From the NCBI GenBank assembly GCA_014859965.1, contig JACZKQ010000019.1, forward strand, positions 1-64,000: a stretch of DNA of 64,000 nt. Reading direction: 5' to 3'. Positions 46,997 through 63,180 of the stretch are shown here, in pieces (position 1 is the first letter of the stretch; each line of letters opens with the position of its first letter). A program made the position numbers and the translations under genes. Source of the stretch: Phycisphaerae bacterium (GTDB lineage Bacteria > Planctomycetota > Phycisphaerae > Sedimentisphaerales > Anaerohalosphaeraceae). Below the pieces are notes generated by a model that did no database searches, was not told the origin of the DNA, and saw nothing but the letters and a program-made list of their open reading frames with translations.

Positions 46997-47424
46997 GATT
47001 CGGCGGCCTCTTTTCGGCGGGCCGGCACAGTGGGCCCGAGTCGTTTGACCCGCGCGGTCATCTCCTCGGCGATCTCAGCGAATCGGCCGCCCATCGCCGA
47101 GGACAGGTTGAACATCTCCACTCGCTCGGGTTCAAGCCCGACTTCGGCGATCAGGCGTTTAACGTATGCAACGCGCTTTCTGGCCCGCAGATTACCTTCG
47201 AGAAAATGGCACTCCCCTTCCATGCATCCGGCGACGAAGACGCCGTCAGCGCCGCTCTCGAACGCCTTCAGCAAATGCAGGGCATCGACCTTGCCCGTAC
47301 ACGGCAGGCGGACGATTCGGACGTTTGGCGGGTACTGCAAGCGCATGGCGCCGGCGAGGTCCGCCGCGGCGAACGCACAGAAGTTGCAGCAGAACGCAAC
47401 AATCTTTGGTTCGAAGTCAGTCAT
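46993..47424 (-). CDS. mvhD: MvhD-like hydrogenase/Hdr-linked iron-sulfur subunit
   Basis: Small protein of 143 residues in the MvhD/VhuD (hydrogenase delta subunit) family. Conserved cysteines: FCCNFCAFAAADLAG at the N-terminus, RLPCTGKVD, and CMEGECHFLEGN. In methanogens it joins hydrogenase or formate dehydrogenase to HdrA; here no hydrogenase gene is present, so it may connect another donor or simply complete the Hdr module, as in the acetogen MetFV-HdrABC-MvhD set. Its start overlaps the end of the HdrA fusion by 8 bases. Confidence 0.9.
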   Translation of the reverse strand: MTDFEPKIVAFCCNFCAFAAADLAGAMRLQYPPNVRIVRLPCTGKVDALHLLKAFESGADGVFVAGCMEGECHFLEGNLRARKRVAYVKRLIAEVGLEPERVEMFNLSSAMGGRFAEIAEEMTARVKRLGPTVPARRKEAAES

Positions 47425-50400
47425 TTTTCACCAGTTCACTTTTCGTGTCGAACAAAGCGTCGGTCTTGGCGATCACCTGGGCATCCTTGTAGTGCATCAG
47501 GCTGATGGCCTTTGCCGGACATTCCGACGCACAGATGCCGCAGCCGTGGCACATGGCGGCTTCGATGACCGCGACCCCGTCGGTGTCGATCCGCGGGACG
47601 TCATAGGGGCACGTCCGCACGCAGGTCAGGCACGCGGCGCATCGGTCGCGGTCGACGACACTGACGATGCCGCTGACTTCCATGACAGGACGCGAGAGGA
47701 TGGACACCACCTTGGCTGCGGCGGCCTGCGCCTGCGTAATCGTCTCGTCAATGAATTTCGGTGCATGGCAGGTCCCGCAGAGGAACAGCCCGTCGGACGC
47801 AAAGTCGACGGGGCGCAGCTTCATGTGAGCCTCCAGGAAGAAGCCCTCGCGCGTGACGGGGACCTTGAAAGCCATGCCGACCTTCTCATTGTCCGGCTGT
47901 GGGATCATGGCGGCGCTGAGCGCCAGAACATCGGGGTCAAAACGAAGCGTCAGTTGTGAATTGAGATCGCGGACTTTAACTTCCAGCCGGCCGGATGCGT
48001 CGGCTGCGACTACGGGTTTGCTGTCGAGATCATAACGGAAAAACAACACGCCCAGCCCTCGGGCTTCATTGTAATAGTCTTCGCGGAAGCCGTACGTCCG
48101 GATGTCACGGTAAAGGACCGCAACGGTTGCCTGGGGGTTGGCGCATTTGATGGCGGCGGCGTTCTTGACTGCGACCGTGCAGCAGACGCGGCTGCAGATC
48201 ATACGATCCGAATCCCGTGAGCCGACGCACTGAATCATAACGACCTCCTGGAGCTTTTCAGCATAGCTCGGATCGTCACACAGGCGGTTTTCCAGTTCGA
48301 GCTGCGTCATCACACAATTGTTGTCGCCGTACAGATATTCACGAGGTTTCGCCTCGTTTGCGCCGGTCGCCACAATCGCGGCCCCGTGTTCGAGTTCGAG
48401 TACCTTGGGACCCGGGCCTTCAAGCTGCACAACGGATTTGAAGTCGCCGATGAAGCCCTTACACTCCTTCAGGGTCGCACCGTAGTGGACTTGAATGTTT
48501 TCGTTTTCGCGGACCTGCTTGATGAGACCAGCAAGCAGCAACTGCGGATCGGACTCGTCCAGCACCTTGCGAACATTTCGGACGTTGCCTCCGAGCCGAT
48601 CTGTCTTTTCCAGCAGATGCACACCGTAGCCCTGATTGGCGATCGACAGCGCGGCGGTAATCCCGCCAACCCCCCCGCCAACGACGACGGCGCTCTTCTT
48701 CGGGACATAAGTCCTGGTTTGCAGCGGCTCGATGGTGGCGGCCCGCCCGACGGCCATCTTCACAAGGTCGACCGCTTTTTTCTCGGTAAGGTCACCAAGG
48801 CGGGTATGCACCCACGTGCACTGATCGCGAATGTTGGCCATCTCGAAGAGGTAGGGATTGAGGCCGACTTCTCTGACGGCTTCCTGGAAGAGCGGTTCGT
48901 GTGTGCGCGGCGTACACGAGGCGACGACCACGCGATTAACGTCGTACTTTTTAATGTTTTCCTTGATGGCTCGCAGGCCGTCCGGCGAGCAGGTATACAG
49001 CAGGTCGGTGGCGAACACAACATTGGGCAGGCCGGCTGCATCAGCGGCGATCTTCCTGCAATCGATGACGCCGCCGATATTAGAGCCGCAATGGCAGACA
49101 AAAACGCCGATGCGCGGGACCATGCCAAAAACGTTTCGCTCGTCGGGATAGTGCTTGTCGGCGACCTGCGTGCCCCGCACTTCCTCCAGAAGTTCCATCG
49201 CCGCCGCCGCCGCGCCGGTAGCCTGGGTCACACTCTCGGGAATGTCTTTGGGGCTTTCAAAAGCGCCAGCCAGATAGACACCGTCGCGGGAGGACTTCGT
49301 TGGGAAGTAGCCTGCGGAGCGGGCGAATCTATACGCGTTCAGTTCGATACCGCAGACGTCGGCGAGTTGAGCCGTACCCTCGGCGGGACACAGGCCGGAC
49401 GACAGGATAACCATGTCGAACTCCTCTTCGACCCAGTTCTTGCCGTCGGCGCTGTATTCGATGGTGAGGTTGTACGTCTTAAAGTCCTGGCGTACGGCTG
49501 ACGGCCGCGTGTAGATATACTGGACGCCATATTTGTCTTTGGAGCGTTCGTAGTATTCGTCGAAACCTTTGCCGAAAGCCCGGACGTCCATGGCGAATAC
49601 CTTCACTTGCGTTTCCGGCACGTGCTCGGCAATGACGACGGCTTGCTTGACCGCGTACATACAGCAGACCGACGAGCAGTACGGATTCTCGGTGTCGCGG
49701 GAGCCGACGCACTGGATAAAGGCGATCCTGCGCGGCTCCTCGCCGTCGGAGGGTCTGCGGAGATGGCCCATTGTAGGCCCGGAGGCGCTCAGCAGCCTTT
49801 CACAGTCGAGCCCGCTGACGACATTGGGGAACCGGCGATAACCATACTCGCCCTTTCTGGCGGCATCGTACACGTCGAAGCCCGGCGCCAGGATGAGCGC
49901 CCCAACGTCGAGCGTCCGTTCTTCGGGTTTGTCGTTGTACTGTATGGCTTCGGCCTCGCAAAGCTTTTCGCACAGGCCGCAGGACGAGCACACCGCACAA
50001 TAGAGACAGCGGCTTGCCTCGGCGACAGCCGTTTCTTCCGCAAAGCCGAGATCAACCTCCTCAAAGCTTCGGCGGCGTTGCAGATCAATTGTAGGCATCT
50101 GCCTGCGACGAATGACTTTCGCTTTGCGTTCCTTGAGTTCCTCTCGCGAAATTTCGGCGACCGGCTGCTTCTCCTCGGGGGGCAGCTCAACGCCCCGGAG
50201 CCATGCGTCAATCGCCCGGGCGGCGAACTGGCCGTCGGCGGTGGCCTGGACGACGCTTGCGGCTCCCCGGACAACGTCGCCGCCGACAAAGACGCCCTGC
50301 CACGTAGTCATCCCGTTCTGCGCATCGACTTCGACGGTGCCGCGGCGCGTCAGTTTGATCTTACCGCCTTCGGCCAGCAGGCCAAGTTCGGGTTTCTGTC

Positions 50401-51892
50401 CGATGGAGACGATCAACTCGTCGGCCGCGACGGTTCGCTCGCTGCCTTCTATGGTTTCCAGTTCAAGGCGGCCGTCGACAAACGCCATCCGCCGCACGTC
50501 GAGCAGTTCGAGCCCGGCAAATGCATTGCCGTCCCCAACAATCCGCTTGGCAGCTTTGGCGGCAAGCACTTCCACCCCCTCCTGCTCGGCCCATTCGATT
50601 TCCCAGGGATAAGCGGGCATCTTGTCGCGGGACTCCAGACAGACAATGCTGACTTTTTTGGCCCCGAGACGCATCGAGGTGCGGGCGCAATCCATGGCGA
50701 CATTGCCGCCCCCCACGACGATGACGCTTGCCTTCACGGACGTTCTCTTGCCGAGCCGGACATCTCGCAGGAAGTCGATACCATGTGAGACATTCTCAAA
50801 GTCCTCTCCGGCAAGCCCCATACGAGCGCTCTTGTGCGAACCGACAGACAGGAACACCGCTTCGAAACCTTCCTCAAAGAGGGCCTGGATGTCCTCCTGG
50901 TGCTGGATATGACTGTGTCGCCGCACCTCGATACCGTAGTCGAGGATGTTTTGAATGTCGCGGTCGATGACCTCCGTAGGCAGCCGGTATACAGGGATGC
51001 CGATCCGCATCATACCGCCGAGGACCCCGTGCTTCTCGAAAATGGTGACAGCATAGCCCATCTTGCGAAGATCCAGCGCGGCCGCCAGCCCGGCGGGGCC
51101 GGAACCAATGACGGCTATCCTGCGGCCATTCTCGGTGATGGAGGCCCGCTTTTGCTCGGGAGTGGGTTTTTCGCCATGCTCGGCGTACCAGTCGCTGAGG
51201 AAACGCTTCACATACGCAATTGCGATCGGATCGTCCAGATTGCCGCGGTTACACGCCTGCTCACAGGGGTGTTCGCAGATCCGCCCGCAGATACCGGGAA
51301 ACGGGTTGTTGGCGGTTGCAGACTCGTAGGCCTCTTGGAAACGACTGGCGGCCGTCAGGGCCACGTACCCGCTGGGATTAGCGTGAATGGGGCAGGCGTC
51401 ATAACAGGGAGCCCAGCCGAGGCGTGTCATGGCAAATTTATTGGGAACAGCCTGAGGGTATTTCTTGAAGATCACCCGGCGGTCGCCTAACAGTTGGTTA
51501 TACTCATCTTTTACCGGGACGGGGCAGTTCTCGCCGCAGATACCGCATCCGGTGCACTTTTCAAGATTGACGAAACTCGGCCTTTGTGTAATCGTCGCCT
51601 GAAAATTGCCGGCCTGTCCGGTAAGCTGCGAGACCTCGGCGTTGGTAATGATTTCGATGTTGCGGTGCGTGCCCGCAGCGACCAGACGCGGCGAAATAGT
51701 GCACATCGCACAATCATTGGTGGGAAATGTCTTGTCCAGTTGCGCCATACGGCCGCCGATGGCGGTGCTTGACTCGATAAGGTAGACCTTGTATCCGGAG
51801 TCCGCAAGATCAAGCGACGCCTGGATGCCGGCAATGCCCCCTCCCACCACCATCACCGAACCGATTTTTGCACTTTCGCCCATAATCACCAT
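47417..51892 (-). CDS. hdrA: HdrA-GltD-HdrA fusion flavoprotein
   Basis: Very large flavin/iron-sulfur protein of 1491 residues. Order: HdrA FAD-binding start (VVGGGIAGIQ at about 15-24; NDCAMC at 59-64); a cluster motif CTGCGICGENC at 113-123; a GltD/NfnB-like NAD(P)H:flavin module about 155-600 with its own Cys set (CYDACPIHANPSGY, CGRICEHPCEQAC) and two dinucleotide loops (IGSGPAGLA near 262-270; VVGGGNVAMD near 392-401); an HdrA half with CLYCAVCSSCGLCEKLC and IQCVGSR; a second HdrA half (VFVCHCGSNIGG near 905; VVGGGVGGITAAL near 1045); and a C-terminal two-cluster ferredoxin. The GltD part points to NAD(P)H as a donor and HdrA flavin to bifurcation; both are inferences. ATG at 51892 or 51883 are both possible. 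Confidence 0.88.
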   Translation of the reverse strand: MVIMGESAKIGSVMVVGGGIAGIQASLDLADSGYKVYLIESSTAIGGRMAQLDKTFPTNDCAMCTISPRLVAAGTHRNIEIITNAEVSQLTGQAGNFQATITQRPSFVNLEKCTGCGICGENCPVPVKDEYNQLLGDRRVIFKKYPQAVPNKFAMTRLGWAPCYDACPIHANPSGYVALTAASRFQEAYESATANNPFPGICGRICEHPCEQACNRGNLDDPIAIAYVKRFLSDWYAEHGEKPTPEQKRASITENGRRIAVIGSGPAGLAAALDLRKMGYAVTIFEKHGVLGGMMRIGIPVYRLPTEVIDRDIQNILDYGIEVRRHSHIQHQEDIQALFEEGFEAVFLSVGSHKSARMGLAGEDFENVSHGIDFLRDVRLGKRTSVKASVIVVGGGNVAMDCARTSMRLGAKKVSIVCLESRDKMPAYPWEIEWAEQEGVEVLAAKAAKRIVGDGNAFAGLELLDVRRMAFVDGRLELETIEGSERTVAADELIVSIGQKPELGLLAEGGKIKLTRRGTVEVDAQNGMTTWQGVFVGGDVVRGAASVVQATADGQFAARAIDAWLRGVELPPEEKQPVAEISREELKERKAKVIRRRQMPTIDLQRRRSFEEVDLGFAEETAVAEASRCLYCAVCSSCGLCEKLCEAEAIQYNDKPEERTLDVGALILAPGFDVYDAARKGEYGYRRFPNVVSGLDCERLLSASGPTMGHLRRPSDGEEPRRIAFIQCVGSRDTENPYCSSVCCMYAVKQAVVIAEHVPETQVKVFAMDVRAFGKGFDEYYERSKDKYGVQYIYTRPSAVRQDFKTYNLTIEYSADGKNWVEEEFDMVILSSGLCPAEGTAQLADVCGIELNAYRFARSAGYFPTKSSRDGVYLAGAFESPKDIPESVTQATGAAAAAMELLEEVRGTQVADKHYPDERNVFGMVPRIGVFVCHCGSNIGGVIDCRKIAADAAGLPNVVFATDLLYTCSPDGLRAIKENIKKYDVNRVVVASCTPRTHEPLFQEAVREVGLNPYLFEMANIRDQCTWVHTRLGDLTEKKAVDLVKMAVGRAATIEPLQTRTYVPKKSAVVVGGGVGGITAALSIANQGYGVHLLEKTDRLGGNVRNVRKVLDESDPQLLLAGLIKQVRENENIQVHYGATLKECKGFIGDFKSVVQLEGPGPKVLELEHGAAIVATGANEAKPREYLYGDNNCVMTQLELENRLCDDPSYAEKLQEVVMIQCVGSRDSDRMICSRVCCTVAVKNAAAIKCANPQATVAVLYRDIRTYGFREDYYNEARGLGVLFFRYDLDSKPVVAADASGRLEVKVRDLNSQLTLRFDPDVLALSAAMIPQPDNEKVGMAFKVPVTREGFFLEAHMKLRPVDFASDGLFLCGTCHAPKFIDETITQAQAAAAKVVSILSRPVMEVSGIVSVVDRDRCAACLTCVRTCPYDVPRIDTDGVAVIEAAMCHGCGICASECPAKAISLMHYKDAQVIAKTDALFDTKSELVKND

Positions 51893-51925: not shown

Positions 51926-53689
51926 TCAGAACAGGCCGCGGACCTTGCCGGTTTCCACGTCCACATCGATGCGTCGGAAGGCCGGATCGGAGGCGGTCCC
52001 CGGCATGAGCTTAATGCCGCCGGCGACCGGCACGACGAAGCCCGCGCCGCGGTAGATCATGATGTCACGGATGGGCAAGAGCCAGCCCTTGGGACGATTT
52101 TTTAGATCGGGATCATGCGAAAGACTTAAATGGGTCTTGACCATGCAGGTCCCCAGTTCCTTTGCCGCGGGATCAGCCTCGATGGCCTTGGCTTTGGCGA
52201 GAGCGTCGTCAGTATAAGTGACGCCCTCGGCCCCGTAGACCTCCTTGGCGATAAGTTCAATCCGCTTGCGCAGGGGCGTGTCCAGCTCATAAAGAAAGCG
52301 AAAATTGCTCTTCTCTTCGCAGGCTGCCACAACGGCCTCAGCCAGTTCCACGGCTCCTTCGCCGCCTTTAAGCCAATGCTCAGACAGAGCCGCCATCGCA
52401 CCGTTATTCTCGGCGACCCTGCGGACCAACTCAATTTCAGCCTTTGTATCGGTATAGAAGCTGTTGACACAAACGATGGGGCGAACACCGGCTTTCTTGA
52501 CGGTCTCGATATGTGCGATCAGATTCTCGCAGCCCTTTTCGAGCAGACCGAGGTTTTCCCTGGCGTACTCCTGGCTCAGCGGCATGCCGGGCTTAACTTC
52601 GGGTCCGCCGCCATGCATTTTAAGTGCTCGGATCGTGGCGACGATGACCACGGCATGCGGCGCCAGGCCGGACATGCGGCATTTGAGATTCCAGAATTTT
52701 TCAAAACCGATATCGGCGCCGAAACCGCTCTCAGTGACAAGATAGTCCATCAGACGCGTGCCGACCAGGTCGGCAATGATGGAGCTCTGGCCGATCGCAA
52801 TATTGGCGAACGGGCCGGCGTGTACGAGGACGGGCTGGCCTTCGATCGTCTGCATGAGATTGGGATTCAGCGCGTTGAGCATCCACGCGGTCATGGCGCC
52901 GTCGACTTCGAGGTCGGCGGTCGTGACCTCCCTGCCTTTCATGTCATGGGCGACGACAATCCTCGCCATACGCCGGCGGAAGTCTTTCAGGTCCCTGCTG
53001 ACGGCGAGAATTGCCATCACTTCACTTGAGACAGTGATCTGAAAGCCTGATTCCATCTCGTAGCCGTCCATTCTGCCGCCTTTGCCGACGGTAATGTTTC
53101 GCAGCGCCTGGGCACAGAAGTCCATCACCCAGCGCATTTGCACGCGGTCGGGATCGATGTCGAGCCGCTTGAGGTTGCTCCTGGCGAGTCGAGCGTCATC
53201 GTAGTTGCGCTCGTGCTGCATCCGGGCGGTGAGGGCGACCATGGCAAGATTGTGCGCATTGCTGATGCAGTCAACATCGCCGGAGAGGCCGATTGAAAAT
53301 GGGGTCAGCGGAATACACTGGGCGAGCCCGCCGCCGGCCGCGGAACCCTTGATGTTGAATGTGGGGCCGCTGCTGGCCTGGCGGATGGCCCCTACAACGC
53401 GCTTATTGATCTTGCCGAGCCCCTGAACCAGACCGATTGCCGTCGTGGTCTTGCCTTCGCCTAACGGCGTCGGAGTAATAGCCGTGACATCCACGTACTT
53501 GCCCTGCGGGTTAGTCTTCACCCGTTCGAGAATTTTCAGGTAGTCGAGCTTGGCAAGCTTCGTACCGAGCGGCAGCAATTCGCCATATGCCAGACCAAGT
53601 TCGCACGCCAGTTGCTCCAGCGGTTTCATACTCTCCTCGGCTGCCTCGGCAATCTGCCAGTCCGCCATTTTGGTCGGATCCAGTTTCAT
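51926..53689 (-). CDS. fhs: Formate--tetrahydrofolate ligase
   Basis: ATP-dependent enzyme of 587 residues making 10-formyl-THF from formate, the entry step of the methyl branch of the Wood-Ljungdahl pathway. P-loop [10 protein letters not shown] is at 74-83; conserved [35 protein letters not shown] and the [12 protein letters not shown] block are intact. I chose the ATG at 53689 with GAGGAAAAG upstream; an in-frame start at 53710 is less well placed. It lies 33 bases upstream of the HdrA fusion and opens the seven-gene unit. folD, the next step, is not in the window. Confidence 0.95.
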
Positions 53690-54204
53690 AGCTCTTTTCC
53701 TCGTTGACATCAGATACTCTGTTTCTCGCGGTTAATCAGCCTTACTCAGGCCGCACATCGTACCGAAAAAAACCGTCATTACCACGTTATTTTATGTTTG
53801 TCGGCCCCGAAAATGTTCAAAACACCATCTTCACTGAGGCCCAAATCAGGACACAAAATTTGCGGTGCCCGTGCCCACTCTACGCTCCTAATTTTCACCG
53901 CTTATCCGCCGGTGACGTGCACCATATACTTAAACCTGCACACGGGCGTGGTAACACCGAGCCGCGCGGGGTACTTACCCGTAAGGATGCTGGCGGCGGG
54001 CGCTGCCGTGGACCTCGCAGGAACACCATAACAAACCACACACCAGCGGAGCCGCTTTCGGGAAATCTCTTCGCGATATTCCGCTCATAAAAAAATGCTC
54101 TACGTTTTTTACGTGGTTTTTTGCTCCAAACCGCACCAGAACGTATTATCGCATAATTCGCCGGGTTTGTACAGAGCCGCGTTGGGGGGCGCACCAAGTG
54201 CGTG
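53690..54204. other. Gap between the folate operon and the cytochrome operon
   Basis: About 515 bases with no gene I can support. It must contain the start signals of the fhs operon on its left and the end of the cytochrome operon on its right. Tracts of T and A near 54090-54115 could take part in termination of the cytochrome transcript, but I found no clean stem. No convincing promoter hexamer pair was found. Confidence 0.35.
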
Positions 54205-55155
54205 TTAGCGGATGTGGCATTTTCGGCACAGATCGCCGCGATCGGCGACGGTGAAGTGGGTGCGGCCGCCCGCGTACAGGCTGTGACAACTGCCGCAGCC
54301 GACCCGCTCATCAAAGAGCCGGACGTGGTCTGTCGCAGGAACAGGGTAGTTGAAAAACACCGTGCCGCCGGCAGCGGTGACGCGATAATTCATGCCGATC
54401 GGATGGTCCTTCATTATCGCCCAGCGTGCGACCCGCTCTTGACGCGATTCGTTTTCGCCGGGAATGGTGACGGTGATGTCTTCGTGACAATCCAGGCAGG
54501 CCAGGGATTCGTCGTCAATATAGCCGAAGGGCGTACCACTGGAACTTGCGGTGCTGTCCGGCAATTTGATATTCCCAAGATGGGCCTTGGTTGAAAAACG
54601 CCAGTGGACACGTTTGCTGCCGACTGCGTTCATTTGCTGGTGACACGACGCACAGATGTCGACCTCGGGGGACAGCAGCACTCCGCCCGGCCGCTGCTGA
54701 TCGCTCGCCCGCAGTGTCCCCCCCGCCGCCGGAACGTGACAGGTAACACACGTAATGCTTCCGAGGGGCATGTACCCAGGTACCCCCGTCGGAACGGCCA
54801 CGTCCAATGGGTGGTTGAGCACAGGATCGTAATCATGACATGCCGACGTTGTACAGGCCCTGTTGATGTCACCGGTCACATGCCAGTCCTCGTGCTTCTG
54901 GTCGGCGGATTCGTGGCACGCAGTGCACGGCAGGTCGAAATGGTGCAGAGGCGTTTCCGCTGATGAGTTACTCGCAGAGTCGCCGGAGAGATCAGTCGGG
55001 GCCAGATGCCACAAAGGCTGCGAAAAGGTCATCTGTTCGGCGGCGTAGTGGCCCGACTCCATCACCGGCGCCGCAAGAACGGCCGACACTAACAGGATGA
55101 CACCGACAGCCATCCACTGGCACTTCAGCCCGGGTTTATTTCTGAATCGTCTCAT
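54205..55155 (-). CDS. Heptahaem c-type cytochrome
   Basis: Exported multihaem cytochrome of 316 residues. A signal peptide (basic MRRFRNK, core WMAVGVILLVSAVLAA) precedes seven haem sites: CTACH, the long form CTTSACH (Cys-x4-Cys-His), CVTCH, CASCH, CLDCH, CGSCH and the C-terminal CRKCH. Many extra His between sites can serve as axial ligands. The ATG at 55155 starts the signal; upstream in-frame sequence is not signal-like. It is the last gene of the cytochrome operon, 222 bases downstream of the 12-haem gene. Long-form haem motifs are rare and may need a dedicated maturation enzyme. Confidence 0.87.
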   Translation of the reverse strand: MRRFRNKPGLKCQWMAVGVILLVSAVLAAPVMESGHYAAEQMTFSQPLWHLAPTDLSGDSASNSSAETPLHHFDLPCTACHESADQKHEDWHVTGDINRACTTSACHDYDPVLNHPLDVAVPTGVPGYMPLGSITCVTCHVPAAGGTLRASDQQRPGGVLLSPEVDICASCHQQMNAVGSKRVHWRFSTKAHLGNIKLPDSTASSSGTPFGYIDDESLACLDCHEDITVTIPGENESRQERVARWAIMKDHPIGMNYRVTAAGGTVFFNYPVPATDHVRLFDERVGCGSCHSLYAGGRTHFTVADRGDLCRKCHIR

Positions 55156-55377
55156 TTCTTTCGCTCGCGGCACGGTTGCGTAGGACGCTGCGAGTGTATC
55201 GCCCGAAACGGACCCGGTAAAAAGCAAGAAATATTGTGCAGCGGACGGCAAAAGGATTAGGGAAACGAGAGACGAAAAAACGTCCGATAACTCGCCATGG
55301 CCCGGAAGACAGGTAAACTCCATAACCTGGGCGTTAAGCGCAGCGCCGCCCATGCTGGCAAGCAACAGGTCACCGCG

Positions 55378-57048
55378 TCAGTAAGCTTCGCGGCGGTATT
55401 CTTCGGGCGAGTGCTTTTCGCCGTGGCACTCCAAATAGCATCGGCCCCGAAAGACGCCAAGGTCCTCGAATTCCAGCCGCCCCGTGTCCGGGTCCGCAAA
55501 GACAACATTGGCATCGAAGTTGATCAGGTTGCTGTGATTGACCGCGGTCCCCTGGGTGCGACTGATACCGTGCGGGTCGTGACAAACCGAGCACGGCGTC
55601 TTCTGGTCTTGGATGTGCTTCTTGTGTCGGCTGAAACTCTCATCATTGAGGATGCTCTGCCGATCATGGCAGCGATAGCACAATTCGTACGCGTAAGGGC
55701 TCTCCTGCGTGTTGTCGTCCGTTTCATATTGATAAGCCAGCAGGAACGGAAACCGCGAGCCGTGGGGGCCCTTTACCTGCGAAGAGGCATCGGCGCTGTG
55801 ACAGTCGGTGCAGTAGATGATCGTCGATTCGTCCATACCTGGGACAAGACTGGGAACGTTCGGATTTGCCCCCTGTGTGACCACAGGATGGTACGATGGA
55901 TTGCCTCTTTCGAATTCGAGCAGCGTGCTGGTCTGCGTGATTTGCCGCGAGATCGTGCCCATTATCTCGACCGGATTGTTGCCGTGACATTTGAAGCAGA
56001 CCTCGTATTCGTAAGCTGCGTTGTCGATGGGGCTGCCCTCGCTGGTGACGCCGCTGACGGCGCGCATGGCTTCCTGAATGAAGGGCGCCCGTGTCGCGCC
56101 GGCGCCGACCTTCACGGCATGGGGATTATGGCAATCCACGCATTCGACGTGCGCTTCGGCGCCGCCGGCCAACTCCTTGATATCGTGCACCCCTTGATAA
56201 TCCTTGACGAAATGCCCGCTCGTGCGGTCGAATTCGTCCACCATGTTCTTCCGGGCCACGAGGCCGTTATGGCAACTGAGGCAGTTTTTTTCCTCTTCGG
56301 CGAAGTGTAACAGCCGCTCGGCGCCACCGGCCGAATGCGGCCGATGGCATGAAAGGCACCCGTTGTCGGCGACGCTGCGATGCCCCGTCCCTGTCAGGTA
56401 CGGATCGGCGGCCTGCTGAACACCGGCAGTCGATGTTGCATGGATACTGTCCGTCCAGCCCGCCAGATCATGGCAGGTGATGCACAATTGCGAACCCACG
56501 TTGAGCGTAACGAGAAAATGACCGAAACTGTTGTCGTGAGGGTCATGACAAGTCACGCATTGCATTTCGCCGAATCGGTCCAGCCGAAATTCCTGCGGCA
56601 GCGTATCGGGGTGCCGAATCTGCGGGTCTTTGCCGGCCAGTTCGGCGGAGTAGACAAAACTCACCGGATGATCGTCGGAAAGATCCGTGCCCAGATTCGC
56701 TGCGCCCGGGCGCATAAACGCCGAGCCGGGTTTGCCCGTGACGGTGGCATCCAGCGCGACGGTCCCGTCATGACAGCTCAGGCACAGCTTGCTGGAGCCG
56801 GTGGGCTGGCCCACTTCGGCATCCAGGGAGGTGCTCCAGTAGATCTCATACGTTCGGTCGGAAAGCTTGTGATTCCAAAGCGGCGTGCCGGCGAGCGCCT
56901 TGTGCGGAGTGTGGCAAAACTGGCAGGCCATGCTCCCGTCGCCGCCCGGCGAAAAATCATGCGCCGTGCCTGAGACGCCGGCCGGCGCCATCGAAACGCA
57001 TAAACAGACGGCCAGAGCGCCGATACATGTGCACAGGTTCATTTTCAT
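55378..57048 (-). CDS. Dodecahaem c-type cytochrome
   Basis: Exported cytochrome of 556 residues. A signal peptide (LCTCIGALAVCLCVSMAPAG) is followed by twelve haem sites: eleven CxxCH (CQFCH, CLSCH, CVTCH, CITCH, CLSCH, CLSCH, CVDCH, CFKCH, CTDCH, CYRCH, CSVCH) and one variant, CYLECH (Cys-x3-Cys-His), near the end. Spacings and CH...PH pairs (CHDPH, CHRPHS, CHNPH) resemble stacked-haem proteins of the doubled-CxxCH kind. The start overlaps the NHL lipoprotein stop by 4 bases (ATGA), so it is translated with it. Expected location is periplasm or outer-membrane face. Confidence 0.9.
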   Translation of the reverse strand: MKMNLCTCIGALAVCLCVSMAPAGVSGTAHDFSPGGDGSMACQFCHTPHKALAGTPLWNHKLSDRTYEIYWSTSLDAEVGQPTGSSKLCLSCHDGTVALDATVTGKPGSAFMRPGAANLGTDLSDDHPVSFVYSAELAGKDPQIRHPDTLPQEFRLDRFGEMQCVTCHDPHDNSFGHFLVTLNVGSQLCITCHDLAGWTDSIHATSTAGVQQAADPYLTGTGHRSVADNGCLSCHRPHSAGGAERLLHFAEEEKNCLSCHNGLVARKNMVDEFDRTSGHFVKDYQGVHDIKELAGGAEAHVECVDCHNPHAVKVGAGATRAPFIQEAMRAVSGVTSEGSPIDNAAYEYEVCFKCHGNNPVEIMGTISRQITQTSTLLEFERGNPSYHPVVTQGANPNVPSLVPGMDESTIIYCTDCHSADASSQVKGPHGSRFPFLLAYQYETDDNTQESPYAYELCYRCHDRQSILNDESFSRHKKHIQDQKTPCSVCHDPHGISRTQGTAVNHSNLINFDANVVFADPDTGRLEFEDLGVFRGRCYLECHGEKHSPEEYRREAY

Positions 57049-58112
57049 CGTGCTTGAGCCTCCAGCAGTTGAAAAATCTGTATTCTCTTGTTGAACGAGT
57101 CGGCGACAAAGATGCGGTCGCGGTCATCGATGAAGAGCCCCATAGGCAGCCAGAACTCGCCCGGGCCGCGTCCTTCGTGTCCGAGGGCCATGAGTATCTG
57201 CCCGTCGGCGTTGAATATCTGCACGTTTTCAAAATGTTTGTCCGTCACATAAATGTTGCCTGAACGGTCCGTGGCGATGCCCGAGGGATGGGCAAAATAC
57301 CCCGGCCGGTTGCCGTGCTCGCCGATGCTGCGGACAAACCGGCCATCCGGCTCAAAAACCTGTATACAATAATTGAGTGTGTCGCTGACATAGATGCGGC
57401 CCTGCCGGTCAACCGACACGAACGTCGGAAAGCGCAGACCTTTCGGGCCCTGATCACCCAGCGAGCCAAGATGCTTTCCCCGCAAATCGAACATGTCGAC
57501 GACGTGCCTCTTCGTATCGACGACGTACAGCCTCTGCTGAGATCTGCCGTAAGCGATACCCGATGGCCGCTGCAGGATGCCGTGACCGAATGCAAACCGA
57601 TAATTGCCGGCCGTGTCAAAGACACACACCCTGCCGAGTACACTGTCCGAAACATAGACGTTATCTTCCACGATCGCGATGCCGACCGGCGAGCGCAGCG
57701 TACTGTCACCGTCCAGCTTTGAAAACTGCACATACTTTCGCGTCTTCAAATCCATGATGTGTATCACCGCCGCGCCGCCGGCGGCGACAAACAACCGGTC
57801 GCCGTCAACAGCCACACTCCTGGGATTCTTGAAAACGCCGACGTCCTTGCGGCCGAAGATCAGCCTTCCGAAGGCCTCCGCACCCGACACGCGCCGTCCC
57901 AGGTCGCCCTCGCCGCTCAATTGGCCGAGGTATTTGATGCGAGCAGGCTCCGGCGGTTCGGGCCAGACAATCGCCCCGTGCGTGTCCGTGAACAGCGGCT
58001 GCTGTACACTGCCGCATCCGCCCCATGCGATCGTCAGCAGAACCGCCGCAAACCACGCGGCCGTCGGCGGAAATTTCTGTTTTAAGCGTTGCACAGTCGT
58101 TTGCATAGCCAT
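57045..58112 (-). CDS. NHL-repeat beta-propeller lipoprotein, copy 1
   Basis: Envelope lipoprotein of about 353-355 residues (ATG at 58112 or 58106). After the hydrophobic AAVLLTIAWGGC lipobox it forms a six-bladed NHL propeller; blade-like repeats include NPRSVAVDGDRLFVAAGG, SPVGIAIVEDNVYVSDS, RPSGIAYG, FPTFVSVDRQGRIYVSD, HPSGIATDRSGNIYVTD and LPMGLFIDDRDRIFVAD. NHL propellers mostly bind proteins or peptides; here it may act as a scaffold for cytochromes or the barrel. It lies 9 bases after the beta-barrel gene and is coupled to the dodecahaem gene. A second, divergent NHL lipoprotein opens the operon. Confidence 0.86.
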   Translation of the reverse strand: MAMQTTVQRLKQKFPPTAAWFAAVLLTIAWGGCGSVQQPLFTDTHGAIVWPEPPEPARIKYLGQLSGEGDLGRRVSGAEAFGRLIFGRKDVGVFKNPRSVAVDGDRLFVAAGGAAVIHIMDLKTRKYVQFSKLDGDSTLRSPVGIAIVEDNVYVSDSVLGRVCVFDTAGNYRFAFGHGILQRPSGIAYGRSQQRLYVVDTKRHVVDMFDLRGKHLGSLGDQGPKGLRFPTFVSVDRQGRIYVSDTLNYCIQVFEPDGRFVRSIGEHGNRPGYFAHPSGIATDRSGNIYVTDKHFENVQIFNADGQILMALGHEGRGPGEFWLPMGLFIDDRDRIFVADSFNKRIQIFQLLEAQAR

Positions 58113-58121
58113 CCTGCCTTT

Positions 58122-60146
58122 TCAAAAACGCCTGATCATTTTAATGAAAAACATCGAGTTCGTCGTCTCCGTATTTCCGCGATCCAACACATAGTAGCCC
58201 CATCCGCTGCGAATACTGAGCGCCCGCCGATGATACTCCATAGCCGCATCCAGGCGAAAGCCGTCCGTCCGACCGATGTCGCTGCTGTCTTCACGCCGCA
58301 ATTCCGCATCGCCCGTGAGGCGCAGGTGTTTGGTTAACCGATTCTTAAAGCCCGCCCGTGCGGTGAAAAGAGACGTTTCGCGGTTGCGGTCACCGGTCGA
58401 ATCGATCCACGCTTGCGCCACCTGGCCGTGGACCGAGGTCGTCGGTGACAACGACCAGTGCGCGCTCGCTGTAAGCCGATCGCTTTGGGAACTGTTGCGT
58501 GTGGCTTCCACCTCGCGATGCTCGGCCGTCAGGGTATAATTCCGTATTCTGTAAGCGGCGCCGAATGTATTAGATTCATAATCTTCATCCGGGTCGACGG
58601 CGACGGCATGCGAGTAGTCAATGTCCGTTTGGCGGTTCTGATGCGCATAGTACACCGAAAAGCCATTCTTAAACATCTGTTCTATACGAAAGGTGTGTTC
58701 GAGGAGGTCTTCGGTGGCGGACGTCTCCACCGCATAGAGGTAGTCCACATGAAGGTTCTGGCCGTCGCTGATATTCGGGAAGTCGGCGCCGAGCGTCGTC
58801 ACATCAAGTTCAATCCAATCGCCGATCTGTCGAATGATGTAATCGTCGCCCTCCGTGTAGATCTCCGTGCCCGCGGCATTCTTCACCACGATGGTGTCGA
58901 CCAGAATGCCCCTTTTTTCCAGAGCGATCGGGAACGGATCGCTGAAGGTGTGGGATTCGTCAAGCACGATATCCGTGCCGGTACTGCCCGTACTTTCCAA
59001 ATTGAGCATCCGGAACCCGTATTCCGCCGTCAGCAGGCCCCACGGATTGTGTCGGTAGTAGTTGAAATGGATGTCGCCGCCGCGAGAAAGCGACTCGCTG
59101 CTGCGGCCGAATTCCGTCTTATGACTGTAAAGGCTCAGTTTCGTCGTAAAGTTGTCATACAGGCGGTGGGTGAAGCCGCCCACACCGCCGAGCGTCCGGC
59201 TGTCGATGGATTCGAACGTGTTCTGCGAATAATGAGCGCTGTAAAACGTGCTGAAGCTGTCGCTGTGGCGCAGCAGGAGGCTCTCCTGCCATTCGAGAGT
59301 CTGCGTATCGAAATCGCTGTCCCGGTCGACGAACGACAGATGCGACCTCAGGCTGTGACGATTGTCCGCACCGAAAGTGTAATCATGAGCAAGCCGATAG
59401 TTTTGCGTTTTGATGCTGCGGGAGTAACCCGTGCTTTTCTGCAGAATGTCGTCCATGTCAAACCTGAAGTCCAGGTGGGATCGCTCGCTGAAATCGTGGG
59501 CGACAGAATAGGCAAAACGCTCGGACCGTCTGTCGAACATAAAACCGCTGTCATCGAGATCCGCCCGCTGCTGCATATGGCTGTCCGTCCAGGAAAACGT
59601 CATCGGCCACTCCGAATGACGCCACCGGGCGAGAATGCCGCTGGACGTGTTTTCCATATGCAAGGGGCTCCTGAACCGCCGCGGCAGAAACGTTTCCTCT
59701 TTGTTCAGGCTGACACTGAAGGGGTACGGTTTGCCGGAAAGAAAATGGGAGATCAGCCGGTAACTGTTCATGCTGCCGGACGAACTGCCGGAGCTGGTGC
59801 CGGTGTCGAATTTTTGCTGGACCAACCCCATGCCCAGGCCCGCCGCATAGGTCATGAACTTCGGGTCGAACACGTCGCCCTCGGTGTGAAGATACAGTTC
59901 CTCCTGCATAATGCTGCTTTTGTTTTCGTGGTGGGTGGTTGCCGACTCGAGTTCCTCCGTGTACTGTCTTGCCGAGACGCGCAACTCGCCGTGAATGCCG
60001 TTTCCGCGCAGCAAAGGCCGCTCGCTGCCGCGGACGCGAACCGCACAGCCCGTATGCAACAACACCCCCGAACACGCTGCGGCGATCAGGAGTATGCCTC
60101 GAAAGTCAATTCCGTTGACACATTTCTTTGATGTGTCCTTAGTCAA
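58122..60146 (-). CDS. Outer-membrane beta-barrel lipoprotein, candidate electron-conduit porin
   Basis: Protein of 674 residues. A lipoprotein-like signal ends LLHTGC near residue 34, then alternating polar/hydrophobic strands run to the C-terminus, many ending in aromatic residues, and the chain ends in Phe (MFFIKMIRRF), the barrel-assembly signal. I estimate over 20 strands, enough for a pore that could hold a multihaem cytochrome, like MtrB or Geobacter Omb proteins. A non-barrel segment at about 400-470 (EGDDYIIRQIGDWIEL) is a probable plug or periplasmic domain. Start appears to be TTG. I recognise no specific family; the link to electron conduits comes from the flanking cytochromes. 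Confidence 0.75.
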   Translation of the reverse strand: MTKDTSKKCVNGIDFRGILLIAAACSGVLLHTGCAVRVRGSERPLLRGNGIHGELRVSARQYTEELESATTHHENKSSIMQEELYLHTEGDVFDPKFMTYAAGLGMGLVQQKFDTGTSSGSSSGSMNSYRLISHFLSGKPYPFSVSLNKEETFLPRRFRSPLHMENTSSGILARWRHSEWPMTFSWTDSHMQQRADLDDSGFMFDRRSERFAYSVAHDFSERSHLDFRFDMDDILQKSTGYSRSIKTQNYRLAHDYTFGADNRHSLRSHLSFVDRDSDFDTQTLEWQESLLLRHSDSFSTFYSAHYSQNTFESIDSRTLGGVGGFTHRLYDNFTTKLSLYSHKTEFGRSSESLSRGGDIHFNYYRHNPWGLLTAEYGFRMLNLESTGSTGTDIVLDESHTFSDPFPIALEKRGILVDTIVVKNAAGTEIYTEGDDYIIRQIGDWIELDVTTLGADFPNISDGQNLHVDYLYAVETSATEDLLEHTFRIEQMFKNGFSVYYAHQNRQTDIDYSHAVAVDPDEDYESNTFGAAYRIRNYTLTAEHREVEATRNSSQSDRLTASAHWSLSPTTSVHGQVAQAWIDSTGDRNRETSLFTARAGFKNRLTKHLRLTGDAELRREDSSDIGRTDGFRLDAAMEYHRRALSIRSGWGYYVLDRGNTETTNSMFFIKMIRRF

Positions 60147-60151
60147 TGGGC

Positions 60152-60892
60152 TCAGTCAATTAACTCAATGATGTTGGGATCCGCCGGCAATGTCGCAGCA
60201 ATTTTGAGAAGGTCCTCATGTTCGCTGGCATGCGGATCGTGACAGTCGGTGCAAAGCATCTCTTCCATCTTGTCATGGCCGGCAACAGCAGCTATATCCC
60301 CGCGGACGTGACAACGATAACACAAATCCGGCTGGGGAGCGACCTGCAGGTGTACGTAACCGCTTTGATGGGGATTATGACAGAACACGCACTCCCCGAC
60401 CGCCACCGGCCCGTGCAGTCGGTTGGTCGGTGTCTCATGGCGATCATGGCAGGAATAGCATAACTGGGGCACGGGCTCGATCAGTTCACGCTCGTATTGT
60501 CTGAAACTGGAGGCGTGACAGATGGTGCAGTCCCGCGCGGGCGAATGTCGCGAACCGCGCCGCTGCAGTGAACCCGCGCTGAGGTCCCCCGCCGTTCCGT
60601 CAGCGGGCAGTCCGCCGGTGTTTAACACCACAACGGACGACGAGGGGCGTGCGTCCTTGTCGACCGGAGGCACACCTTCGAAGAACAGCGTCAGCCACGC
60701 GTGGCGTTGACTATCGTCACACCCGATGCTGAAGACGGCGGCAAAGAGGCATATCCCCAGCAGCCATGCAGCCGCACCCCGTGTGCATCGCCACAAGCGA
60801 TGTCCCGCAGGCCTTGCACAAGCCTCCGGACGGACTCCTGCTGTACGTTTCTCTTTCTTTACCATCACCCTCATTCCGTGCCGTAACGGCAT
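60152..60892 (-). CDS. Pentahaem c-type cytochrome, probable lipoprotein
   Basis: Cytochrome of 246 residues with five CxxCH sites (CTICH, CYSCH, CVFCH, CYRCH, CTDCH) in its C-terminal 130 residues and CHDPH/CHNPH pairs. The N-terminus has a long basic region, a hydrophobic core and a lipobox ending FSIGC, so it may be lipid-anchored. The start is uncertain: adjacent TTG and ATG (60895/60892) lie directly after the upstream NHL stop, and an ATG at 60865 with GAGGG upstream also fits. It is followed after 5 bases by the beta-barrel gene. Confidence 0.83.
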   Translation of the reverse strand: MPLRHGMRVMVKKEKRTAGVRPEACARPAGHRLWRCTRGAAAWLLGICLFAAVFSIGCDDSQRHAWLTLFFEGVPPVDKDARPSSSVVVLNTGGLPADGTAGDLSAGSLQRRGSRHSPARDCTICHASSFRQYERELIEPVPQLCYSCHDRHETPTNRLHGPVAVGECVFCHNPHQSGYVHLQVAPQPDLCYRCHVRGDIAAVAGHDKMEEMLCTDCHDPHASEHEDLLKIAATLPADPNIIELID

Positions 60893-60895
60893 CAA

Positions 60896-62098
60896 CTATT
60901 TCGGTGATTCTGAGCGCACAGGCTCCTGCGGCCTTGCTTGCTCGCTGCGCTCCGAGATATCACTTGCGCTGCTGCCTGAAGGAGCAAACAACTCCGGAAA
61001 TGTCCCGAAACCATATACACTCACCTTCTGATTGCCGAACTGATTGGTGACCAATACCAGAAAGTCGAGTTTAGCGCCCTTGACAGCGTACTTCTCAAAC
61101 AACTTCACATTGTCGTAATCAAGGGTCACATCGGCCGGCAGATACATCTGGCCGGGTAACGTTCCGAGCGTGCCGAAATACATCAGAAGCTGTCCGTCCT
61201 CTCGGAAGACCTTCACGGCGCACGAGGGACCCGCATCGGCGACCCACACCCGTCCCTCCCTGTCTACGGCGATGCCCTTGGACCGCACGAGACTGGCCGG
61301 GCTGCTGCCCCCCCCCTGTCCGTACGAACGCACAAACGATCCGCCGGGCCCAAAACGCGTCACACTGCCCTTGAGCTTGTCCCCCACATACACGTCGCCG
61401 TTGTGGTCGACCGCCAGATCGGTAATCATCGCGAGCTCTTCGGCGCCGGGCCTCTGCCCGTCGCCGACGCCTTTGCCGATTCGCCCCAGGAGCTGGCCGC
61501 TGTGCTTATCCAGTATGAGAACTTGATTGCTGTTGGCGTCGGTGATGTAAAGGCTTCCGCCGTGGACGACCACGTCGATGGGCCGCATACCCAGATCGCG
61601 CCCCAGGAATGCCGCGAGTTTGTCCTCCGCGTTCCAGACGGAAACCACGCCCGAACCGACGTCGGCCACATACTTGGTCCCATCGGACTCGATGAAAATA
61701 TTGGCGGGCCGCTGCAGAGACCTGCCCGAAGGAAACGTCGCAAAAGTGTTGTTGACAAGGTCCATAATTTTGATGTTGCCCTGCCCGACATCGCAGACGT
61801 AAATTTTGCCCTTGTGCAGGGCAACCCCGTAAGGCTTTACAACCGAATCGACGGGCGCCTCCGAATCACCGAGCACAAACGTCTCAAGGAAGCTGGCTTT
61901 CTCAACGTGGAAATCCTTGCCTCCCGCGAAGGAGGTGAGGAATTGCAGACGCGGCGTACTTGGCGGCGGCGGATAAAAGACCGGTTCGAATTCCGCTTTC
62001 TGCATCGCCGACTTCTGGCATCCGGCATTTATGCACAAGCCCCATGCGGCCAGGCAGCCAATTACAATCTGCAAGAACCGAGCACCACGACCAGTCAT
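60896..62098 (-). CDS. NHL-repeat beta-propeller lipoprotein, copy 2, first gene of the cytochrome operon
   Basis: Lipoprotein of 400 residues with lipobox CINAGC and a propeller with blades such as KPYGVALHKGKIYVCDVG, RPANIFIESDGTKYVADV, MRPIDVVVHGGSLYITDA and MITDLAVDHNGDVYVGD. After the propeller, a C-terminal segment (ADVTLDYDNVKLFEKYAVKG...LVLVTNQFGNQKVSVYGFG) follows a pattern recurring in NHL proteins near cytochromes. I chose the ATG at 62098 because AAGGGGG lies about 9 bases upstream and a signal peptide begins there; the 66 residues before are not signal-like. It is followed directly by the pentahaem gene. Confidence 0.86.
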   Translation of the reverse strand: MTGRGARFLQIVIGCLAAWGLCINAGCQKSAMQKAEFEPVFYPPPPSTPRLQFLTSFAGGKDFHVEKASFLETFVLGDSEAPVDSVVKPYGVALHKGKIYVCDVGQGNIKIMDLVNNTFATFPSGRSLQRPANIFIESDGTKYVADVGSGVVSVWNAEDKLAAFLGRDLGMRPIDVVVHGGSLYITDANSNQVLILDKHSGQLLGRIGKGVGDGQRPGAEELAMITDLAVDHNGDVYVGDKLKGSVTRFGPGGSFVRSYGQGGGSSPASLVRSKGIAVDREGRVWVADAGPSCAVKVFREDGQLLMYFGTLGTLPGQMYLPADVTLDYDNVKLFEKYAVKGAKLDFLVLVTNQFGNQKVSVYGFGTFPELFAPSGSSASDISERSEQARPQEPVRSESPK

Positions 62099-62433: not shown

Positions 62434-63180
62434 TTACTTGATATGGCACGTCTTGCACAGGGCACCGTAATTTAGCTCATAACTCTGTGCAAGATAGTTC
62501 AGGCCGGCTCTTCGGGCGCTGTAGGTCAGGCCCCACTGGATTCCCGGAATATTGACCAGGTGCGGAATGCTCAGTTCAAACTCGCCCGAACCGGGAGCCG
62601 TCACCGGCTTTCCTTCACCATCCAGTATCGGGTTGCCGCCCGCGTCGTATTGCGGCACAGCATCATTATCCCACTGAACCAGTTGCCCATGAAGCCCCTG
62701 GAGGTGGATATCGTGGCAGCTCTGGCAATTCACATAGCCCTTGGTCGCACTGAGGAGGTCGTCACGAATGGTACCGCGGCCATGTACCACGTTACTGGGG
62801 CTGGCTTCAGGGTGCAGCTCTGGATCCTGCGCCGCCGCCATGGCATAAGAGAATTCAATGGGATGCGTTCCGCTCAGATCGCCGCCGGCACTGTTGATTG
62901 TGTGGCTGCTGCCGTCCGTCGCGTCGTGGCAAGCCAGACAGAGCAATGTGGGCCCCTCAGGGTCGCCCGGCGTGGCGTCCATGGTTTCGCTGGAGTAATT
63001 CGTCCAACTCGTTTGCGTAGTCATAGTCCCGCTCCACAGCGGCATGTCCGTCATCTGCTGCGCTTTGTGGGGAATGTGACAGGAGTCACAATCATAAGTC
63101 GAGCTGCTCTCAATGCTGTGGAAAGCCATCAGCGGCGCCGCAATACCGACAAGCGATACCAACAAGAAATACTTTTTCAT
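62434..63180 (-). CDS. Tetrahaem c-type cytochrome
   Basis: Exported cytochrome of 248 residues with signal peptide MKKYFLLVSLVGIAAPLMAF and four haem motifs CDSCH, CLACH, CQSCH and CKTCH, the last at the C-terminus. The layout (CxxCHIPHK start, CHDATDG, CHDIHLQG) resembles doubled-CxxCH or NrfB-like periplasmic electron shuttles. It has its own terminator, so it is probably a separate transcript from the downstream operon, between that operon and the HzsA-related gene. GGAGGTAAGG-type ribosome-binding site precedes the ATG. Confidence 0.9.
   Translation of the reverse strand: MKKYFLLVSLVGIAAPLMAFHSIESSSTYDCDSCHIPHKAQQMTDMPLWSGTMTTQTSWTNYSSETMDATPGDPEGPTLLCLACHDATDGSSHTINSAGGDLSGTHPIEFSYAMAAAQDPELHPEASPSNVVHGRGTIRDDLLSATKGYVNCQSCHDIHLQGLHGQLVQWDNDAVPQYDAGGNPILDGEGKPVTAPGSGEFELSIPHLVNIPGIQWGLTYSARRAGLNYLAQSYELNYGALCKTCHIK

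What the first reader, a model, noticed from the sequence alone, without database searches (positions are those of the whole stretch)
54205..62098. NHL-cytochrome-barrel-NHL-cytochrome-cytochrome operon: candidate trans-outer-membrane electron conduit
A large lipoprotein beta-barrel of 674 residues is flanked by a pentahaem cytochrome and by 12-haem and 7-haem cytochromes, with two NHL propeller lipoproteins. Together with the neighbouring tetrahaem gene this gives at least 28 haem sites. The arrangement mirrors porin-cytochrome conduits (MtrCAB; Geobacter PCC clusters) without close resemblance of parts. Gene spacing is 3-9 bases or overlapping for most steps, arguing for a joint complex.
Basis: partly seen in the sequence, partly recalled or inferred. 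Interest (0 to 1): 0.8.

Follow-up and report, generated by a model that had tools for sequence, protein, structure and literature searches.

The report
Outer-membrane conduit with OmcE-type nanowire gene
These planctomycete genes form a conserved set, found in at least a dozen bacterial phyla, that probably wires the cell's outer membrane to an external cytochrome filament, and one protein looks like the plug joining the two.

Summary
The genes are a 5-haem cytochrome, a 674-aa barrel, two NHL propellers, a 12-haem cytochrome (11 CXXCH plus an invariant CX3CH) and a 7-haem cytochrome, with a 4-haem gene upstream.

(1) This is a widespread module. The order 4h-NHL-5h-barrel-NHL-12h, or close variants, recurs in Planctomycetota, Nitrospirota, Desulfobacterota, Verrucomicrobiota, Zixibacteria and Hydrogenedentota. 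It is permuted in Bacteroidota, KSB1, Calditrichota and Ignavibacteria. The 7-haem gene is a satellite.

(2) The 4-haem protein and the first 190 residues of the 12-haem protein belong to the OmcE nanowire family (PDB 7TFS, E = 2e-45 with a profile), with all haem ligands kept.

The barrel is predicted at 28-30 strands (pLDDT 88.7); MtrB has the best TM-score among the 50 listed fold matches. The 5-haem lipoprotein is MtrA-like.

Best model: an MtrA-like wire inside the barrel passes electrons to the 12-haem protein, whose OmcE-like head is the base of an OmcE-type filament. The gene inventory matches the published Uet clusters, whose sequences I could not obtain. Filament formation and the pore occupant are inferred. 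I rate it a new variant of a known kind.

The parts
62434..63180 (-). A: tetrahaem cytochrome, OmcE family (putative nanowire subunit), Sec signal peptide
   Evidence: 4 CXXCH; phmmer to PDB 7tfs OmcE E=6e-10; matches the OmcE-like part of the F profile; a homologue 51% identical to Geobacter OmcE sits in the same slot of the same cluster in another genome
60896..62098 (-). B: NHL propeller lipoprotein 1
   Evidence: NHL 7e-12; start ATG 62098 with Shine-Dalgarno and lipobox INAGC; homologues fused to octahaem domains in four genomes
60152..60892 (-). C: pentahaem MtrA-like lipoprotein (candidate in-barrel wire)
   Evidence: 5 CXXCH at 23-residue spacing; PDB MtrA 6r2q_A E=7e-11; family signature lipobox Cys...FFFDGVPP
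58122..60146 (-). D: large outer-membrane beta-barrel, 674 aa, probably lipidated in this clade
   Evidence: AF2 pLDDT 88.7, 28-30 strands; MtrB 6r2q_B has the best TM-score among the 50 Foldseek matches listed, 0.44/0.45; lipobox in close homologues
57045..58112 (-). E: NHL propeller lipoprotein 2, directly upstream of F
   Evidence: NHL 1.6e-30; NHL gene precedes F in 74 of 80 named loci
55378..57048 (-). F: 12-haem cytochrome; residues ~9-193 OmcE-like head (4 haems), the rest an octahaem domain with MtrC/F-like similarity and a CX3CH site
   Evidence: 7tfs E=7.8e-22 (single), 1.8e-45 (profile); only significant fold hit of its model is 7tfs; PF22113 50.8 bits; OmcE ligands conserved
54205..55155 (-). 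G: heptahaem satellite cytochrome, not part of the conserved core
   Evidence: 6 CXXCH + CX4CH; homologues in about 13 loci but some kb away or on the other strand; probable start 55155

Best explanation
A-B-C-D-E-F encodes a trans-outer-membrane electron conduit coupled to an OmcE-type extracellular cytochrome filament. The MtrA-like pentahaem lipoprotein C lies inside the wide barrel D and carries electrons across the outer membrane. Outside, the octahaem part of F receives them, and its OmcE-like four-haem head forms the base (terminal subunit) of a filament polymerised from A. The NHL lipoproteins B and E act as docking or assembly scaffolds. Shown here: the genes, homologies, conservation of order, ligand conservation and predicted barrel. 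Inferred: C as pore occupant, polymerisation of A, F as junction, the role of the NHL proteins, and the direction of electron flow, which may be either.
For: Conserved order: D-E-F contiguous in 55 of 80 named loci, NHL-F in 74, a D-family barrel in 69, full ABCDEF in 25 and ABCD in 38, with many loci cut by contig ends. The barrel occurs in 76 of 298 genomes of the class, and the D-E-F arrangement holds in nearly all of the 40 loci examined. A and the F head belong to the OmcE family. All four CXXCH and all four conserved non-motif histidines of OmcE are kept in almost all of 55 A-type and 68 F-type sequences; OmcE has an interfacial haem ligated by a His of the adjacent subunit (PMC12954529). 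F also keeps further invariant histidines, e.g. H203 just after its fourth haem, so it could close its own chain. In the Geobacter-like family F is intact, or split into adjacent OmcE-like and octahaem genes, so the two halves are separable modules. C is MtrA-like and is doubled to 9-10 haems in other phyla. D is a confident 28-30-strand model with MtrB the best TM-score among the 50 listed hits. B-type NHL is fused to octahaem domains in four genomes.
Against: No complex could be modelled. Many gammaproteobacterial clusters have D, E and F but no C, so another cytochrome would have to fill the barrel there. In some Geobacter-family genomes the split F lies without a D-type barrel nearby. A in this genome is only distantly related to OmcE in a pairwise search (6e-10). 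No expression or localisation data. Nearly all loci examined come from metagenome-assembled genomes.
Confidence: 0.6

Rival explanations
1. Conduit with the octahaem domain of F itself threaded through barrel D, its OmcE-like head outside and C a periplasm-side donor.
For: F, not C, accompanies D almost everywhere; clusters with D but no C exist.
Against: C is the MtrA-like lipoprotein beside the barrel in most loci; the C-terminal part of F resembles the external MtrC/MtrF domain (PF22113); split F occurs without a D barrel nearby.
Confidence: 0.15
2. Ordinary porin-cytochrome conduit of the Uet kind with no filament: A is a soluble or surface tetrahaem electron acceptor or donor.
For: The published Uet inventory (4-haem, barrel, trihaems, two NHL, 11-12-haem; PMC10734462) matches the components found here.
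Against: A and the F head keep every OmcE ligand, including the one that must act between subunits in OmcE (PMC12954529).
Confidence: 0.15
3. D with the NHL lipoproteins is an export or assembly channel for the extracellular cytochromes and not itself an electron path.
For: NHL-F is the tightest gene pair; in the Geobacter-like family the split F lies beside GspE/GspF-like genes.
Against: An MtrA-like pentahaem is encoded next to the barrel in most loci, and the barrel resembles MtrB most by TM-score among the listed hits.
Confidence: 0.07
4. Unrelated redox genes that happen to be neighbours.
For: None found.
Against: Conserved order across at least 12 phyla.
Confidence: 0.01

Closest known systems
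Uet (undecaheme electron transfer) cluster, 'Ca. Tenderia' and Gallionella (PMC10734462; PMC5371394)
   Same: Beta-barrel (UetC), two NHL proteins (UetHI), tetrahaem (UetA), 11-12-haem cytochrome (UetJ); proposed porin-cytochrome complex.
   Different: Uet as published also has a PPIase and three trihaems (UetDEG), and the Tenderia cluster a TPR gene; here a single pentahaem lipoprotein. I found gammaproteobacterial intermediates with two trihaems in place of C. No Uet sequence was available, so homology is not tested.
OmcE nanowire, Geobacter sulfurreducens (PDB 7TFS)
   Same: A and the F head are family members with all ligands conserved.
   Different: OmcE itself is a lone tetrahaem; in Geobacter-like genomes its locus is trihaem-ResBC-10-haem-8-haem-NHL-OmcE-(~750-800 aa protein without Pfam hit). 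The fusion of an OmcE-like head to an octahaem (F) is different.
MtrCAB
   Same: Barrel plus MtrA-like wire plus external cytochrome; C matches MtrA and D is closest by TM-score to MtrB.
   Different: D has no MtrB_PioB family hit; C has 5 haems, not 10; F is not MtrC; NHL lipoproteins are added.
Oet conduit (OetABI) and the four-gene SEEP-SRB core (PMC10553843, PMC5539420); D. ferrophilus DFE cluster (PMC9769857, PMC8322314)
   Same: Conduit or multihaem clusters, the SEEP-SRB and DFE ones with beta-propeller proteins.
   Different: The SEEP-SRB core is a 16-haem, a 26-haem, a PPIase and a propeller; no barrel was identified in the DFE cluster. Sequence relation not tested.

Membership tests
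OmcE nanowire family (proteins A and head of F) | Significant sequence similarity to OmcE over the tetrahaem domain | tested here: met
   F 7.8e-22, profile 1.8e-45, A 6e-10; Foldseek 7tfs E=2.9e-6
OmcE nanowire family (proteins A and head of F) | All four proximal and four non-motif (candidate distal) haem histidines, including the inter-subunit one | tested here: met
   Conserved in 52-55 of 55 A and 67-68 of 68 F sequences; which of them acts between subunits was not determined
OmcE nanowire family (proteins A and head of F) | Polymerisation into filaments | not testable with these tools
   Needs cryo-EM
Uet | Gene inventory: 4-haem, barrel, two NHL, 11-12-haem | tested here: met
   Inventory as in PMC10734462
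Uet | PPIase and three trihaem genes | tested here: not met
   None in the window cluster
Uet | Sequence homology to UetC and UetJ | not testable with these tools
   No Tenderia or named Gallionella sequence could be fetched
MtrCAB / MtoAB | Barrel in the MtrB_PioB family | tested here: not met
   No PF11854 or TIGR03509 hit; MtrB fold similarity only
MtrCAB / MtoAB | Decahaem MtrA | tested here: not met
   C has 5 haems; TIGR03508 53.6 bits against a 192 cut-off
MtrCAB / MtoAB | Haem wire inside the barrel | not testable with these tools
   No complex modelling offered
Oet / DFE / Geobacter PCC (OmbB type) | Sequence homology of barrel and cytochromes | not tested
   Reference sequences not available by name

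The most novel reading that the evidence does not exclude
F is a dedicated junction protein: its OmcE-like head is the terminal subunit of an OmcE-type nanowire made of A and its octahaem tail docks on a barrel-enclosed cytochrome, so this operon encodes the physical joint between an outer-membrane conduit and a cytochrome nanowire, and the joint is shared by at least a dozen phyla.
Probability: 0.4. Interest if true: 0.85.

Novelty: new variant of a known kind. Interest (0 to 1): 0.65.

Why it matters
How extracellular cytochrome nanowires are joined to the outer membrane is, as far as I know, unresolved. A conserved operon that encodes a barrel, an MtrA-like wire, an OmcE-type subunit and a protein fusing an OmcE-like head to an octahaem domain gives a direct, testable candidate for that joint. 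It extends OmcE-type cytochromes to Planctomycetota, Nitrospirota, Bacteroidota, Calditrichota and others. Full-length versions also occur in what appear to be Geobacter-family genomes, some of which may be tractable.

Tried and rejected
Haem motif search with a wrong pattern (ignored). Reading the Tenderiales/Uet and OmcE structure papers (not held) and a Geobacter envelope review (paper cap reached). Looking for the exact Uet gene order in Gammaproteobacteria: trihaem-bearing variants were found, but no locus with PPIase, TPR and three trihaems. Testing whether the gammaproteobacterial order rich in this cluster is methanotrophic with PF02461: nothing rang in targets or controls, inconclusive. 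NCBIfam 'phage tail tube' and Pfam Porin_4 hits on D are below their cut-offs. G as a core member: rejected, because homologues are not adjacent.

Full report
OBSERVATION. On the minus strand the window holds, in transcription order: A (62434-63180, 4 CXXCH), B (NHL, start ATG 62098), C (60152-60892, 5 CXXCH), D (674 aa barrel, 58122-60146), E (NHL, 57045-58112), F (55378-57048, 11 CXXCH plus CX3CH) and G (54205 to about 55155, 6 CXXCH plus CX4CH). Composition shuffles never exceed 3 motifs. Gaps are 3, 5, 9 and -4 nt from B to F, taking ATG 60892 as the start of C; A-B is 335 nt, and F-G is about 222 nt if G starts at its signal peptide. The total of 28 haem sites is right. Pfam finds NHL repeats in B and E, multihaem domains in A, C, F and G, and only a sub-threshold porin hit in D; NCBIfam assigns none to a named family.

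ORGANISM. 

CONSERVATION. The barrel family occurs in 6 of 59 close relatives and 76 of 298 genomes of the class (62 of 219 genera). In 40 fetched loci, B-C-D-E-F or D-E-F recurs wherever the contig allows. Of these 80 loci, many cut by contig ends, 74 have an NHL gene directly before F, 69 have a D-family barrel, 55 have D-E-F, 38 have A-B-C-D and 25 have A-B-C-D-E-F. Bacteroidota, KSB1, Calditrichota and Ignavibacteria use the permuted order E-F-A-B-C-D or close to it. Gammaproteobacteria keep A-B-D-E-F or an NHL-4h-3h-3h-barrel-NHL-11h variant. Some loci of an apparent Geobacter family carry the full set. This excludes chance neighbourhood.

WHAT THE PARTS ARE. F and A: the F profile hits the OmcE nanowire chain (PDB 7tfs) at E=1.8e-45 over its first 214 positions, and 9yuq_N at 1e-35; the window F alone gives 7.8e-22 and the window A 6e-10. 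The AF2 model of F (pLDDT 78, pTM 0.79) has one significant fold match, 7tfs, TM 0.60 on OmcE length. All CXXCH sites and all four conserved non-motif histidines of OmcE are kept in essentially all of 55 A-type and 68 F-type sequences. OmcE filaments have an interfacial haem ligated by histidines of two subunits (PMC12954529), so F and A both keep that ligand, whichever of the four it is. The remainder of F carries eight more haems, ten more invariant or nearly invariant histidines including H203 just after haem 4, and an invariant CX3CH; residues 345-495 score above threshold for the MtrC/MtrF domain (PF22113). In some genomes of the Geobacter-like family F is two adjacent genes, one OmcE-like and one octahaem: the two halves are natural modules. 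In one desulfobacterotal genome a protein 51% identical to OmcE occupies slot A of a complete A-F cluster.

C is a lipoprotein with a recurring N-terminal signature (Cys...FFFDGVPP), then five haems at 20-26, 23, 23 and 23 residue spacing in most loci, doubled to 9-10 in others; its best solved relative is MtrA (6r2q_A, 7e-11). D is predicted with confidence (pLDDT 88.7) as a 28-30-strand barrel with an insert between about 400 and 464. Foldseek finds many large outer-membrane barrels, and MtrB (6r2q_B) has the highest TM-score of the 50 listed (0.44). Close homologues of D have clear lipoboxes; distant ones do not. B-type NHL proteins are fused to octahaem domains in four genomes, which suggests that the propellers sit on cytochromes. 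G homologues occur in about 13 loci but not next to F: a satellite.

MECHANISM. Shown: homologies, order, ligand conservation, predicted barrel. Inferred: C in the lumen of D; F outside, receiving electrons at its octahaem part; the OmcE-like head of F as first subunit of a filament of A; B and E as scaffolds; direction reversible. The weak point is the pore occupant: clusters with D but no C exist, so F could thread the barrel in those or in all. The second weak point is polymerisation, which cannot be tested here.

COMPARISON. The inventory matches Uet of Tenderia and Gallionella (PMC10734462: UetA tetrahaem, UetC barrel, UetHI NHL, UetJ 11-12 haems) except for the PPIase and trihaem genes. 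I could not fetch a Uet sequence, so membership is open, though I think common descent likely. It works like MtrCAB but D is not in the MtrB family. The DFE cluster of D. ferrophilus and the SEEP-SRB/Oet clusters have beta-propellers or conduits but other cores (PMC9769857, PMC5539420, PMC10553843). DFE-type genes were reported among Oslofjord tunnel MAGs (PMC10732223); several Phycisphaerae MAGs of that study carry the present cluster.

VERDICT. Real, ordered, ancient and widely shared; a conduit of a known general kind with a component pair (OmcE-type subunit plus OmcE-headed 12-haem protein) that points to a nanowire junction. I found no published statement of that pairing, but the key Uet and OmcE papers were not readable here.

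Noticed in passing
L002:1325-4210 (just upstream of A, ends at window ~63325): A 961-aa protein with F5/8 type C, PD40 and hydrazine synthase alpha middle domains and two CXXCH, same strand, 144 nt upstream of A.
   Followed up: partly
L002:4454-12481: CusCBA-like heavy-metal efflux operon (OEP, membrane fusion, RND pump) divergent from the cytochrome cluster.
   Followed up: no
L227-L230: OmcE loci of Geobacter-like genomes: PpcA-like trihaem, ResB/ResC, MtrA-like 10-haem, 8-haem, NHL, OmcE, then a ~750-800 aa secreted protein; the one scanned (L228) has no Pfam hit and may be an unrecognised barrel.
   Followed up: partly
L245-L248: F split into adjacent OmcE-like and octahaem genes after an NHL gene, beside GspE/GspF-like genes, in Geobacter-like genomes.
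   Followed up: partly
L249-L254: Full A-F clusters in Geobacter-family genomes with giant 1000-1580 aa multihaem proteins (7-22 CXXCH) next to them.
   Followed up: partly
L066, L068, L072, L076: NHL lipoproteins fused to octahaem domains, divergent from D-E-F and beside the tetrahaem gene.
   Followed up: yes
window 55378-57048, residues 537-542 of F: CX3CH haem site invariant in 54 of 54 aligned homologues, an unusual motif conserved across phyla.
   Followed up: yes
L205, L206, L208: Gammaproteobacterial order with 4-5 Mb genomes, some with chromosome-length contigs, carrying NHL-4h-3h-3h-barrel-NHL-11h, resembling Uet.
   Followed up: partly
window 47417-51892: 1491-aa HdrA/glutamate synthase-like flavoprotein next to formate-tetrahydrofolate ligase (51926-53710), suggesting a Wood-Ljungdahl type metabolism (by reading the sequence).
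   Followed up: no
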